In this document: one piece after another, positions 2,342 to 38,963 of the stretch
How positions within the stretch are numbered: the stretch's first letter is position 1
Layout: every line of letters begins with the position of its first letter
Source of the DNA: Bacillota bacterium
GTDB lineage: Bacteria > Bacillota > Sulfobacillia > Sulfobacillales > Sulfobacillaceae
Direction: 5' to 3'
Length of the DNA stretch: 45,011 nt
NCBI GenBank assembly: GCA_021784595.1
Contig: JAJYHT010000076.1
Span: 1-45,011, forward strand
The notes under the pieces: model-generated
The model's database searches: none
Told to the model about the DNA's origin: nothing
Seen by the model: only the letters and a program-made list of their open reading frames with translations
Program-made: the position numbers and the translations under genes

Positions 2342-3076
2342 ATGGCAGGATTACTTGATCGGGTCAGGACTATTCTGGGTGCTAAGGCCAATAAGGCATT
2401 AGATGCTATGGAAGATCCCACCGAAACTATCGAATATTCCTATGAACAAATGCAGCAAGCATTGCAAGAAACCAGACGTCACATTTTGGAAGTCGCCACC
2501 GCCAAGAAACAGTTGGAAATGCAGGCCTCCAATTTACAACAAAAAGTTACCCAATATGATCAGGACGCAAGAGATGCTGTGCAGTCGGGACGCGATGATT
2601 TGGCTCAGCAGGCCTTGTCTTTGAAAACCACTATGCAACAGCAGGTCCAGGATCTGCAAACCCACATTGAACAAACACAAACCGAAGAAGACAAACTCAC
2701 TCAAGCTCAACACAAATTGGAGCAACAAATAGAAACCTTTGGCACTCAAAAAGAAGTCATGAAAGCGCAATATTCCGCTGCCAAAGCCGAGGTGCAGGTA
2801 GGAGCAACGCTCACCGGCATCACACAGCACGCTCAAGATATCAGCGGCAGCCTTCAGCGAGCCCAGGATAAAATCTCCTCAATGCAGGCTAGAGCATCCG
2901 CCATCGACGAACTTGGAGCTAATCCTGATTTTAATAGTCTCCCTTCGTCGTCCCATACCGACAGCATTCGCCAACAATTGGACGCTGCTAAAGCCAGCAC
3001 CGCGGTGCAAGACGAACTGGCAAAACTAAAAGCTGAAATGCAGCTTCCTCCCAGTTCCCCATCCACACCCTCTTAA
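2342..3076 (+). CDS. pspA: PspA/IM30 family membrane-stress protein
   Basis: The 244-residue protein begins MAGLLDRVRTILGAKANKALDAMEDP, the conserved amphipathic N-terminus of PspA/IM30/LiaH proteins, and continues as an almost uninterrupted Gln/Lys/Glu-rich coiled coil (about residues 25-160), then a short second helical region and a Ser/Pro-rich tail. Family members are ESCRT-III-like proteins that coat and stabilise the cytoplasmic membrane under stress. GGGAGGG ends 6 bases before the ATG. The gene is monocistronic: decayed DNA lies upstream and a large hairpin follows immediately. No pspF, liaRS or other PSP regulator is nearby, so inducer and partners are unknown. Confidence 0.9.
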   Translation: MAGLLDRVRTILGAKANKALDAMEDPTETIEYSYEQMQQALQETRRHILEVATAKKQLEMQASNLQQKVTQYDQDARDAVQSGRDDLAQQALSLKTTMQQQVQDLQTHIEQTQTEEDKLTQAQHKLEQQIETFGTQKEVMKAQYSAAKAEVQVGATLTGITQHAQDISGSLQRAQDKISSMQARASAIDELGANPDFNSLPSSSHTDSIRQQLDAAKASTAVQDELAKLKAEMQLPPSSPSTPS

Positions 3077-7628: not shown

Positions 7629-7635
7629 CAGCATG

Positions 7636-7661
7636 AAACAGAGCCCCGGGGCTCTGTTTTT
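7636..7661 (+). terminator. Rho-independent terminator after rpmE
   Basis: Bases 7636-7659 form a perfect 24-base palindrome centred on CCCCGGGG (10-bp stem with a CCGG loop), running into TTTTT and a second T-rich patch. It lies 8 bases after the rpmE stop and 34 bases before prfA, so it probably attenuates prfA expression. Confidence 0.85.
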
Positions 7662-36486: not shown

Positions 36487-37331
36487 CAGCGAAACGGCGC
36501 ATCATCCTAGATTACCTACAAATTACGACTGGCACAGTGGTTACCGCAGTCGGCATCAATGGCTTTTATGTTCCTAACCGAATCTCTGATGGTGGGGTCT
36601 CGGGCCTAGGCATTATTTTATTCTATCTCGTGCACATTCCGGTCTGGGCCACTCTGTTGGTGGTCAACCTGCCCTTGTTATGGCTCAGCCATAAGCTGTG
36701 GGGAGGGCGGGTTGGCAGCCGCACGGTGTACGGAACCGTGATGCTCTCGGTCGCGGTGGCGCTTTTGACAATACATCCTTTGACCCACAATACGCTGTTG
36801 GCCTCTGTGTACGGCGGACTTTTATCCGGGGTGGGACTAGGACTGGTCTTTCGGTCGCGGGGAACGACCGGGGGCACTGACGTGGCGGCGCGATTTTTAA
36901 GCCACTTGCTCCCGGTCAGCATGGGTCAAGGGATGATGTTGATAGACTTTTTTATCATTGCCGGTTTTGGATTTGTCTTCAATCCGACGATCGCCATGTT
37001 CTCCCTGATTGCCCTTTTCATTTCATCACGCGCCATCGATGTGGTGCAAGAAGGGGTCTCCTATGCCCGGGCGTTTACGATTGTCAGTCAGCACGCCGAT
37101 GAGATCGCGCAACGCGTTTTGGCCAATATGGACCGCGGTGTCACGCGGATTGGAGGGACTGGTGAATACACGGGGGAGCAGCGCACCATTTTGTACGTGG
37201 TCGTCACTCGATCGGAAGTCACCACGCTAAAGGAATTAGTGTATGAGGTAGATCCCGAAGCCTTTGTGGTGGTAGGCACCGTGCACGAAGTCGTCGGAGA
37301 AGGCTTTCGCAAGCCGCCATTGGAGGAATGA
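36483..37331 (+). CDS. YitT family membrane protein
   Basis: A 282-residue protein with five or six hydrophobic helices (1-185) containing GINGFYVPNRISDGGVSGLGII and RSRGTTGGTDVAARFL, both YitT signatures, and a C-terminal DUF2179 domain (about 190-282: GVTRIGGTGEYTGEQRTILYVVV, EVDPEAFVVVGTVHEVVGEGF). The transport substrate of the family is unknown. ATGA overlap with the upstream gene. It is the last gene before a converging reverse-strand operon. Confidence 0.88.
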   Translation: MTAKRRIILDYLQITTGTVVTAVGINGFYVPNRISDGGVSGLGIILFYLVHIPVWATLLVVNLPLLWLSHKLWGGRVGSRTVYGTVMLSVAVALLTIHPLTHNTLLASVYGGLLSGVGLGLVFRSRGTTGGTDVAARFLSHLLPVSMGQGMMLIDFFIIAGFGFVFNPTIAMFSLIALFISSRAIDVVQEGVSYARAFTIVSQHADEIAQRVLANMDRGVTRIGGTGEYTGEQRTILYVVVTRSEVTTLKELVYEVDPEAFVVVGTVHEVVGEGFRKPPLEE

Positions 37332-37333
37332 GG

Positions 37334-38401
37334 CTAGACGTCGTTTTCATCGAGTTGTTGCAGCAAGTCGTCTGCTTCGTCCACCGTCAGGAGCCCTTGT
37401 TGCAACTGTTCTAAGATTTGTAGGCGAGGATCGGTGGGCAGATTATCGATATCTTGGTCTAAATCAGGACCCGTGGATGTTTCGGCAAATTGTCCCAACG
37501 TAATGGTTCCTCGTCGCGTGTGCAGTTGGATATGGGTTGACCCATCACCCACCGATCCTACTAGGCGATGCCCTCGGGCGGGTCCTGGGTTGTTGACTTC
37601 GACTAATTCCATTTGTGAAACCACTCGCCCTTGATCTGTGCTGGCTTCAATTCGGGCGCCTTGGGAGGTGGGAATCGATACATGTACATCACCGCGGTTT
37701 TTGACGTCTACCGCCAAGGACGCCACACGGGCCTCTACTGTTACTGACCCGATGCCCGACTCGCACTCTACATGGTCAAACAAGCCTCCCAAAAGCTGAA
37801 TTTTTCCAAAACCGCTATTGGCTTCTATAGACAGTTTGCGGCTATTGCGGAGCACAATCGAACCCATACCCGCATTGGCGTCCATGTGGCCGGACAAACC
37901 ATTGCCCATAATGTCGCCTTTCCCAGCATTAATGTCAAAGGCTCCGCGGCAGTCATCCAGGGTGATGTTCCCCAAGCCATCATTGACGTCCCCGCTCGCA
38001 TTGAGGTGTTGCAACAGGACGGCGCCTAGTCCTGCGTTAATGTCGATCTGTCCATTAAAGTTTTGCATCGTCACATTGCCCTTGCCGACGTTGATATCGA
38101 ATTCGCCTTTTGAGGCGTCGACCATAAGATTGCCAAGGCCCACGTTAAGATCAGCGCTGGTCAATGACATGCCATTGATGGTGACAGGACCCCAGCCAAG
38201 ATTAAGGTCCAAGGACTTGATACTGGAGGGGACTTCCACTTCAAGTTCCAAGGTGCGCGACTGATCGTACTCGAGGGTTAACCTTTGGTCGGTGCGTTCC
38301 TGTTGGATGGGAAGACTGGAGACAACATGCACTTCGTCATCATGGCTAGGACTAATGCGGACCTTCGCCTTTTTTAGTTTTAAGTTTACTTCGCTTATCA
38401 T
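37334..38401 (-). CDS. DUF4097-like repeat protein with 18-residue solenoid
   Basis: A 355-residue protein without signal peptide or membrane helix. About residues 65-220 consist of repeats of the form DhNhGhGxhhhxxxxGxh, each 18 residues; six in a row are exactly 18 (DLNVGLGNLMVDASKGEF, DINVGKGNVTMQNFNGQI, DINAGLGAVLLQHLNASG and so on), which implies a right-handed beta-solenoid. The C-terminal 25 residues (LQILEQLQQGLLTVDEADDLLQQL) form a short helical hairpin also found in the DUF2089 neighbour. Family members (YvlB/DUF4097) act in cell-envelope stress, function unknown. It follows the DUF2089 gene in the same operon, 52 bases downstream. Confidence 0.75.
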   Translation of the reverse strand: MISEVNLKLKKAKVRISPSHDDEVHVVSSLPIQQERTDQRLTLEYDQSRTLELEVEVPSSIKSLDLNLGWGPVTINGMSLTSADLNVGLGNLMVDASKGEFDINVGKGNVTMQNFNGQIDINAGLGAVLLQHLNASGDVNDGLGNITLDDCRGAFDINAGKGDIMGNGLSGHMDANAGMGSIVLRNSRKLSIEANSGFGKIQLLGGLFDHVECESGIGSVTVEARVASLAVDVKNRGDVHVSIPTSQGARIEASTDQGRVVSQMELVEVNNPGPARGHRLVGSVGDGSTHIQLHTRRGTITLGQFAETSTGPDLDQDIDNLPTDPRLQILEQLQQGLLTVDEADDLLQQLDENDV

Positions 38402-38453
38402 GGATGATCCTCCCTTGAGAAAGGTTTTTTCATCATGGCCAATGCGTGTTTGG

Positions 38454-38858
38454 CTACGCGTCCTTCATCGGACTGCTAGAATTATCCCGAAGCAGCTTCA
38501 GTCCTTCGGCTACCTCAAGTTGTCCCCTACGTATCTGTTCCAGGATAGAGCGGCGATCCCCGGCGATGGCCTCAGAATCTCGAGATTCGAGGTTCAAATC
38601 GGGCTGAAAGGCTTCCACCAATTGGTCCAACTTGCTGCGAACAGTAGGGTAGGAGATCCCCAAGATGCGTTCAATTTCCTTTAGATTGCCGCGGCTGACC
38701 ACAAACACCTTTAAGAACGCCAACTGTTCTTCGGTTAATTCGAGGGTCGGATGACTGTCGAATTGACCCCGTATCATAATATGGCAATGAGGACATGTGA
38801 GCTCGGTGATCTGTAGCGAATGACGACAACTTGGACAGCTCGTCAACATTTTTGCCAT
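38454..38858 (-). CDS. DUF2089 regulator: zinc ribbon plus helix-turn-helix
   Basis: A 134-residue protein. N-terminal zinc ribbon (CPSC at 8-11, CPHC at 22-25), then a helix-turn-helix (LTEEQLAFLKVFVVSRGNLKEIERILGISYPTVRSKLDQLVEAF), a linker and a C-terminal ILEQIRRGQLEVAEGLKLL hairpin. DUF2089 proteins are thought to regulate the neighbouring DUF4097/YvlB-like gene. AGGAGGCGG precedes the ATG, and a promoter overlapped by a palindrome lies just upstream, fitting autoregulation. Confidence 0.85.
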   Translation of the reverse strand: MAKMLTSCPSCRHSLQITELTCPHCHIMIRGQFDSHPTLELTEEQLAFLKVFVVSRGNLKEIERILGISYPTVRSKLDQLVEAFQPDLNLESRDSEAIAGDRRSILEQIRRGQLEVAEGLKLLRDNSSSPMKDA

Positions 38859-38879: not shown

Positions 38880-38908
38880 AGAATATCTTTCACCGACATA
38901 TATGTCAA
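38880..38908 (-). promoter_or_regulatory. Promoter and operator of the DUF2089-DUF4097 operon
   Basis: On the reverse strand TTGACA (38908-38903), 17-base spacer, TATTCT (38885-38880). The 12-base palindrome GACATATATGTC (38895-38906) overlaps the -35, an ideal place for a repressor. A longer, imperfect inverted repeat CCTCATAA/TTATGAGG (38915-38951) lies upstream of it. Confidence 0.7.
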
Positions 38909-38963
38909 TGAAAACCTCATAAACATTAATATTATAGTTAACATTATGAGGGATATGGGGCTG

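What the first reader, a model, noticed from the sequence alone, without database searches (positions are those of the whole stretch)
37334..38858. DUF2089/DUF4097 pair with an exact 18-residue repeat solenoid and a shared C-terminal motif
The repeat protein has at least six consecutive 18-residue units (54 bp each). Its last helix pair (ILEQLQQGLLTVDEADDLL) closely resembles the end of the DUF2089 regulator (ILEQIRRGQLEVAEGLKLL), suggesting the two proteins bind each other or a common partner through it. The promoter has a palindrome over the -35.
Basis: partly seen in the sequence, partly recalled or inferred. Interest (0 to 1): 0.55.

Follow-up and report, generated by a model that had tools for sequence, protein, structure and literature searches.

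The report
DUF2089–Toastrack pair with tandem operator
A bacterial regulator and its partner scaffold protein share a small known helical domain, and relatives of the regulator gene throughout the same phylum carry a strikingly regular array of TTAA sites in the promoter, which probably lets the regulator switch off its own operon.

Summary
The window encodes DUF2089 (zinc ribbon–HTH–helical hairpin) followed by DUF4097/Toastrack (beta-solenoid with six 18-residue units, plus the same hairpin). The shared motif is already catalogued: Pfam PF22746, "SHOCT-like_DUF2089-C". Ravi et al. 2024 (PMC11237479) already describe DUF2089/Toastrack operons as a PSP-like membrane-stress system, so the pair is a member of a known kind. 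It is a stripped-down variant: two genes, no membrane protein, hairpin at the Toastrack C-terminus. By HMM search both the regulator and a downstream partner carry the hairpin in 101 of 115 loci, but specific SHOCT–SHOCT co-variation was not detectable; binding remains inferred. What is conserved, and I found no description of it in print, is a lattice of TTRA tetramers spaced 9/12/21/30/42 bp over the −35: 134 pairs at 21 bp against 7.0 in shuffles, replicated in 63 further loci. Across 398 genomes, 6 of 11 five-site TTAA-rich matches lie at DUF2089 promoters. The window keeps three lattice sites. Best model: DUF2089 autorepresses through tandem TTAA dyads, and SHOCT hairpins couple it to Toastrack or a shared partner.

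The parts
37334..38401 (-). DUF4097/Toastrack protein, 355 aa, beta-solenoid, no predicted membrane helix
   Evidence: PF13349 34.8 bits; AlphaFold2 pLDDT 91.9, pTM 0.81; Foldseek 4qrk E 1.9e-7; hydropathy count 0 TM
37829..38152 (-). six consecutive 18-residue solenoid units (residues 84-191)
37343..37426 (-). C-terminal SHOCT-like helical hairpin of Toastrack (residues 326-353) behind a low-confidence linker (309-322)
   Evidence: PF22746 31.3 bits in the genome search, 27.6 bits; helices 325-334 and 340-353
38454..38858 (-). DUF2089 regulator, 134 aa
   Evidence: PF09862 76.2 bits, PF22747 42.7 bits
38757..38837 (-). zinc ribbon (residues 8-34)
   Evidence: PF22747; invariant C8, C11, C22, C25 in 58 sequences
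38610..38738 (-). helix-turn-helix (residues 41-83)
   Evidence: PF09862; helices 43-54, 59-66, 70-84
38487..38555 (-). C-terminal SHOCT-like hairpin of DUF2089 (residues 102-124)
   Evidence: PF22746 12.2 bits, below cut-off; own-family SHOCT model 39.4 bits (window sequences were among those used to build it); helices 94-110 and 116-127
38903..38908 (-). -35 TTGACA; its TTGA is lattice site 0
38880..38885 (-). -10 TATTCT, 17-bp spacer
38926..38929 (-). TTAA lattice site at -21 from the -35
38938..38941 (-). TTAA lattice site at -33 from the -35
38888..38913 (.). 26-bp imperfect palindrome (11/13 pairs) over the -35, private to this genome
38868..38873 (-). AGGAGG ribosome-binding site of DUF2089
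   Evidence: sequence

Best explanation
This is a minimal, autoregulated DUF2089-Toastrack module. Inferred from comparative evidence: DUF2089 binds, as dimers or an oligomer, TTAA dyads (TTRA-N5-TTRA) repeated every 21 bp (two helical turns) across its own promoter, covers the -35, and represses the operon. Shown by sequence: the lattice, its wide conservation in Bacillota and its concentration at DUF2089 promoters. Inferred with less confidence: the SHOCT-like hairpin tethered to the cytosolic Toastrack solenoid and the one ending DUF2089 dock to each other, or to a shared envelope or PSP partner, so that an envelope-stress signal acting on Toastrack changes how much DUF2089 is free to repress.
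For: TTRA spacing peaks at 9, 12, 21, 30, 42 bp in 115 upstream regions (106, 82, 134, 57, 46 pairs against 7.4, 7.7, 7.0, 6.3, 5.7 in shuffles). AT-matched control regions from the same loci: 2 pairs at 21 bp, 2 at 9. At least one 21-bp pair in 68 of 115 loci against 2 of 115 controls; 48 of 87 after removing redundancy. Replication in 63 new non-redundant loci: 60, 40 and 63 pairs at 9, 12 and 21 bp against 5.8, 5.7 and 5.5. Three or more lattice sites in 61 of 115 against 3.8 in shuffles. The lattice lies on the -35. In 398 genomes, 6 of the 11 places with five sites and at least four TTAA are directly upstream of DUF2089. Window: three sites; 12 of 3000 shuffles reach three, and the exact 3-site arrangement occurs once in its genome, here. 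SHOCT on both proteins in 101 of 115 loci. In 28 aligned Toastracks, four of nine invariant columns are in the hairpin. Net charge +2 against -5 in this pair; 16 of 18 C-terminal-type pairs have DUF2089 the more positive.
Against: No binding data exist. That DUF2089 is the lattice-binding protein rests on association alone. The lattice is weak in the window's genus: 2, 1 and 2 sites in L052, L054, L055. It is strongly AT-dependent (2 of 19 loci below 50% AT have three or more sites) and absent in 15 loci outside Bacillota or of unknown phylum. SHOCT-SHOCT co-variation is not distinguishable from a zinc-ribbon control. A canonical SHOCT did not oligomerise in a published test (PMC3581485), and Ravi et al. 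prefer membrane anchoring. Six of 115 DUF2089s lack a SHOCT detectable by my model.
Confidence: 0.55

Rival explanations
1. SHOCT-like hairpins are membrane or PSP-complex anchors: both proteins go to the same sub-membrane site but do not touch each other (the published proposal for SHOCT-like domains).
For: Ravi et al. 2024 argue this from domain architectures. Related operons often contain a small membrane protein: 9 of 10 five-gene loci have a predicted membrane helix in the third gene. The genome has two PspA homologues, one in this window.
Against: The window operon has no membrane protein and the genome has no PspC hit. The Toastrack hairpin is strongly acidic (-5), which disfavours binding to an anionic membrane surface (general knowledge).
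Confidence: 0.3
2. The lattice is a general promoter or DNA-curvature feature of AT-rich genomes (UP element, phased A-tracts) rather than the DUF2089 operator.
For: Lattice strength rises with AT content.
Against: Spacings 10, 11, 14, 20 and 24 in the same sequences are near background. AT-matched controls from the same loci lack it (control AT 0.605 against 0.642). Shuffles preserve dinucleotides. Genome scans concentrate it at DUF2089 promoters.
Confidence: 0.12
3. The window's own operator is the 26-bp palindrome, recognised by DUF2089 or by another regulator.
For: Long palindrome over the -35 (18 of 5000 shuffles); unique in the genome within three mismatches.
Against: Its 12-bp core is found in 0 of 114 other upstream regions even with two mismatches, although the DUF2089s of this genus that were aligned are 73-75% identical to the window's.
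Confidence: 0.15

Closest known systems
DUF2089-Toastrack neighbourhood of the extended PSP system (Ravi et al. 2024, PMC11237479; section 27 read whole, other passages by search)
   Same: DUF2089 as ZnR-HTH-SHOCT-like; Toastrack gene in the same neighbourhood; SHOCT-like domains at N- or C-termini of Toastracks
   Different: They describe a four-gene context; here two genes, no membrane partner, no linked sigma factor seen. No operator is described in the section read.
Pfam PF22746 SHOCT-like_DUF2089-C
   Different: The window's DUF2089 copy scores below the gathering cut-off
SHOCT domain (PMC3581485; passages read)
   Same: about 30 residues, two amphipathic helices, mostly C-terminal
   Different: The SHOCT-like family is a divergent relative; the canonical SHOCT gave no oligomerisation in their test
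LiaG family (NCBIfam NF049997)
   Same: Toastrack-containing protein; 40.9 bits to the window protein
   Different: Cut-off is 285 bits; no LiaRS two-component genes beside the pair

Membership tests
Toastrack / DUF4097 | PF13349 above cut-off | tested here: met
   34.8 bits against 22.9
Toastrack / DUF4097 | beta-helix fold like 4QRK/4OPW | tested here: met
   AlphaFold2 model; Foldseek 4qrk E 1.9e-7, 4opw E 4.6e-3, though TM-scores are low at 0.15-0.22 of query length
DUF2089 family | zinc ribbon plus HTH models | tested here: met
   PF22747 42.7 and PF09862 76.2 bits
SHOCT-like_DUF2089-C | PF22746 above cut-off in Toastrack | tested here: met
   27.6 bits against 27; 27 of 28 aligned Toastracks match at E 0.01
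SHOCT-like_DUF2089-C | PF22746 above cut-off in DUF2089 | tested here: inconclusive
   window copy 12.2 bits, below cut-off; 48 of 58 family members match at E 0.01; hairpin predicted
PSP-like DUF2089-Toastrack system | DUF2089 and Toastrack in one operon | tested here: met
   adjacent, same strand, 52-bp gap
PSP-like DUF2089-Toastrack system | membrane partner (LiaI-LiaF-TM, PspC) in the operon | tested here: not met
   no such ORF next to the pair; no PspC hit in the genome
PSP-like DUF2089-Toastrack system | role in envelope stress | not testable with these tools
   needs experiment
lia operon | LiaRS two-component system beside the Toastrack gene | tested here: not met
   neighbours are a YitT-like and an MFS gene

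The most novel reading that the evidence does not exclude
DUF2089 proteins across Bacillota are autorepressors that polymerise along one face of a tandem TTAA-dyad operator (TTRA-N5-TTRA every 21 bp) over their own -35. The SHOCT-like hairpin is the tunable joint, either between adjacent DUF2089 dimers or to a SHOCT-bearing Toastrack or small protein encoded next door that pulls the repressor off DNA under membrane stress: a one-component alternative to LiaRS or PspF control.
Probability: 0.35. Interest if true: 0.7.

Novelty: new variant of a known kind. Interest (0 to 1): 0.5.

Why it matters
DUF2089 is a widespread predicted regulator (155 of 398 sampled genomes of this phylum); none of the passages I read on it reports a target or a signal. 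The lattice gives it a concrete, testable operator in dozens of genera, including culturable Bacillus relatives, and predicts autorepression. It also gives a direct way to ask what SHOCT-like hairpins do: whether removing them from the regulator, the Toastrack or the small SHOCT protein changes operator occupancy. That would link the Toastrack branch of the PSP stress response to a specific transcriptional switch.

Tried and rejected
Rejected: the 12-bp palindrome as the conserved operator. Rejected: SHOCT-SHOCT co-evolution as proof of binding. A first partial Mantel test looked significant for all pairs (partial r 0.212, 0 of 500 permutations), but not for the window's own C-terminal type (0.082, 122 of 500), and the zinc-ribbon control gave similar values with bootstrap intervals of the difference spanning zero. 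Rejected: a regulon in the window's genome. The exact 3-site arrangement occurs only here; three one-mismatch hits equal the reversed-pattern control count of three. The five-site pattern search is full of coding coiled-coil repeats (TTGA every 21 bp = heptads); I counted only places with at least four TTAA, by eye: G201, G248, G287:C33, G290, G300, G379 upstream of DUF2089; G287:C54, G065, G153, G307, G066 elsewhere. Of those five, three lie inside open frames, one is at a gene end and one (G287:C54) is non-coding. The DUF2089 model gave no PDB match at E 0.001; sequence searches of solved structures gave nothing useful.

Dropped rows: 119 loci were scanned (window, 38, 80). L040, L094, L147 and L148 failed the DUF2089/CxxC filter, leaving 115. 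Two low-scoring matches were not fetched. The 80 regions were picked by hand, mostly by score, from about 155 positive genomes. Of 80 loci, 14 shared a 30-mer with the first set and 3 were redundant, leaving 63. SHOCT counts use a model built in part from these same loci (53 of 74 segments), so they lean towards detection; Pfam's own model matches 48 of 58 DUF2089s and 27 of 28 C-terminal-type Toastracks at E 0.01. The Toastrack set for A2 was chosen by a C-terminal motif pattern, except L034, so its hairpin conservation is biased upward.

Full report
What is there. On the minus strand the window encodes DUF2089 (38454-38858, 134 aa) and, 52 bp downstream, a DUF4097/Toastrack protein (37334-38401, 355 aa). 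An MFS-type gene lies upstream on the same strand and a YitT-like gene converges from the other side; both are conserved beside the pair in several relatives (MFS in 8 and YitT in 9 of 38 loci). Matching contig lengths suggest that the genus includes Sulfobacillus benefaciens metagenome bins (G004 and PXYW01000062.1, both 13554 bases); this is an inference.

The repeat. Residues 84-191 are six units of exactly 18 residues. The 18-residue period beats all 2000 shuffles, and units share 5-9 of 18 residues. AlphaFold2 gives a confident beta-solenoid (pLDDT 91.9), and Foldseek's best matches are the structures cited for Toastrack, 4QRK and 4OPW (cited), with low TM-scores. The repeat is ordinary for this family.

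The shared motif. It is Pfam PF22746, SHOCT-like_DUF2089-C, and no other PF22746 match in the genome passes E 0.001. In 115 loci the DUF2089 hairpin is found in 109, a SHOCT-bearing partner within the first three downstream genes in 107, both in 101. The partner is a small protein in 47, an N-terminal hairpin in 42 and a C-terminal hairpin in 18. Some apparent losses look like diverged hairpins by eye (L057, L058, L060, L062). Ten loci show a five-gene order: DUF2089, N-SHOCT Toastrack, small protein (membrane helix predicted in 9 of 10), C-SHOCT Toastrack, small SHOCT protein (L086, L089, L104, L108, L113, L119, L122, L126, L128, L139). The window's Toastrack has the C-SHOCT form, so its family appears to keep a two-gene remnant; I did not build a tree to prove this.

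Do the two proteins bind? Both hairpins are predicted as helices. Their net charges differ: DUF2089 +0.24, partner -1.60 on average over 104 pairs, DUF2089 the more positive in 73. Co-variation did not exceed a zinc-ribbon control. Direct binding is plausible, not shown.

The promoter. The DUF2089 promoter is TTGACA-17-TATTCT. Comparing 115 upstream regions revealed something else: TTRA tetramers at spacings 9, 12, 21, 30 and 42 bp. Anchored on the -35, sites fall at -33, -21, -12, 0 (the TTGA of TTGACA) and +9. The unit is TTRA-N5-TTRA, TTAA being the commonest form, repeating every 21 bp. Controls: AT-matched upstream regions lack it; dinucleotide shuffles lack it; 63 new non-redundant loci repeat it. 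Three or more sites are found in 34 of 51 new Bacillota loci and in 0 of 15 others. The window's family as a whole shows it: 38 lattice pairs against 3.6 in shuffles for 24 upstream regions. The window keeps TTAA at 38938-38941 and 38926-38929 plus TTGA of the -35. Given the fixed -35, 34 of 20000 shuffles do as well.

Specificity. A five-site pattern searched in 398 genomes hit 38 of them, mostly coding coiled-coil repeats. Of 11 places with at least four TTAA, six are directly upstream of DUF2089, by comparison with the coordinates. One more, G287:C54, is non-coding and could be a second target.

Mechanism. A repeated dyad covering the -35 of the regulator's own gene points to autorepression. 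The 21-bp repeat places adjacent dimers on one face of the helix, which suggests cooperative binding. Shown: gene order, domains, lattice, its conservation and specificity. Inferred: that DUF2089 is the binder, that it represses, that SHOCT hairpins couple it to Toastrack or a shared partner, and that envelope stress is the signal (from Ravi et al. 2024).

What is known. Ravi et al. 2024 (PMC11237479; section 27 read whole, other passages by search) already describe DUF2089 as ZnR-HTH-SHOCT-like beside Toastrack in a PSP-like context, and propose membrane anchoring for SHOCT-like domains. Eberhardt-type SHOCT work (PMC3581485, passages; author name recalled) found no oligomerisation. A full-text search for DUF2089 found seven papers. 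I saw passages of four (PMC11237479, PMC7332713, PMC9484092, PMC10434189); in them DUF2089 genes appear in a PSP-like context, in two leaderless bacteriocin clusters and in an iron-stimulon table. The other three I saw only in the listing. None of what I read mentions an operator. Subscription papers were not searchable, so a description elsewhere cannot be excluded.

Verdict. The pair is a member of a known kind, in a reduced form. The new content is the DUF2089 promoter lattice.

Noticed in passing
window 2342-3076 (+): PspA/IM30 homologue (PF04012, 112.6 bits) about 35 kb from the pair; a second copy lies on another contig of the genome, and no PspC was found.
   Followed up: partly
L057, L058, L060, L062: In two sister genera (G007/G016 and G010/G018) DUF2089 is followed by a 127-128 aa SHOCT protein instead of a Toastrack, and the DUF2089 hairpin is too diverged for my model.
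   Followed up: partly
L152:283-340: Non-coding TTRA lattice with TTGACA in a genome whose DUF2089 lies on another contig; possible second target, downstream gene unclear.
   Followed up: partly
L038:586-1035 and L064:621-1076: Second DUF2089 loci of G028 and G024 are followed by a 149-151 aa protein with two SHOCT-like matches.
   Followed up: no
window 7635-7660: Strong GC-rich 26-bp palindrome (at least 11 of 13 pairs), the only other one of that quality in the window.
   Followed up: no
window 37331-37334: Stop codons of the convergent YitT-like gene and the Toastrack gene are only 2 bp apart.
   Followed up: no
e.g. G330:C1:39031-39181: TTGA repeats every 21 bp, apparently coding for coiled-coil heptads, mimic the operator lattice; a trap for pattern searches.
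   Followed up: yes
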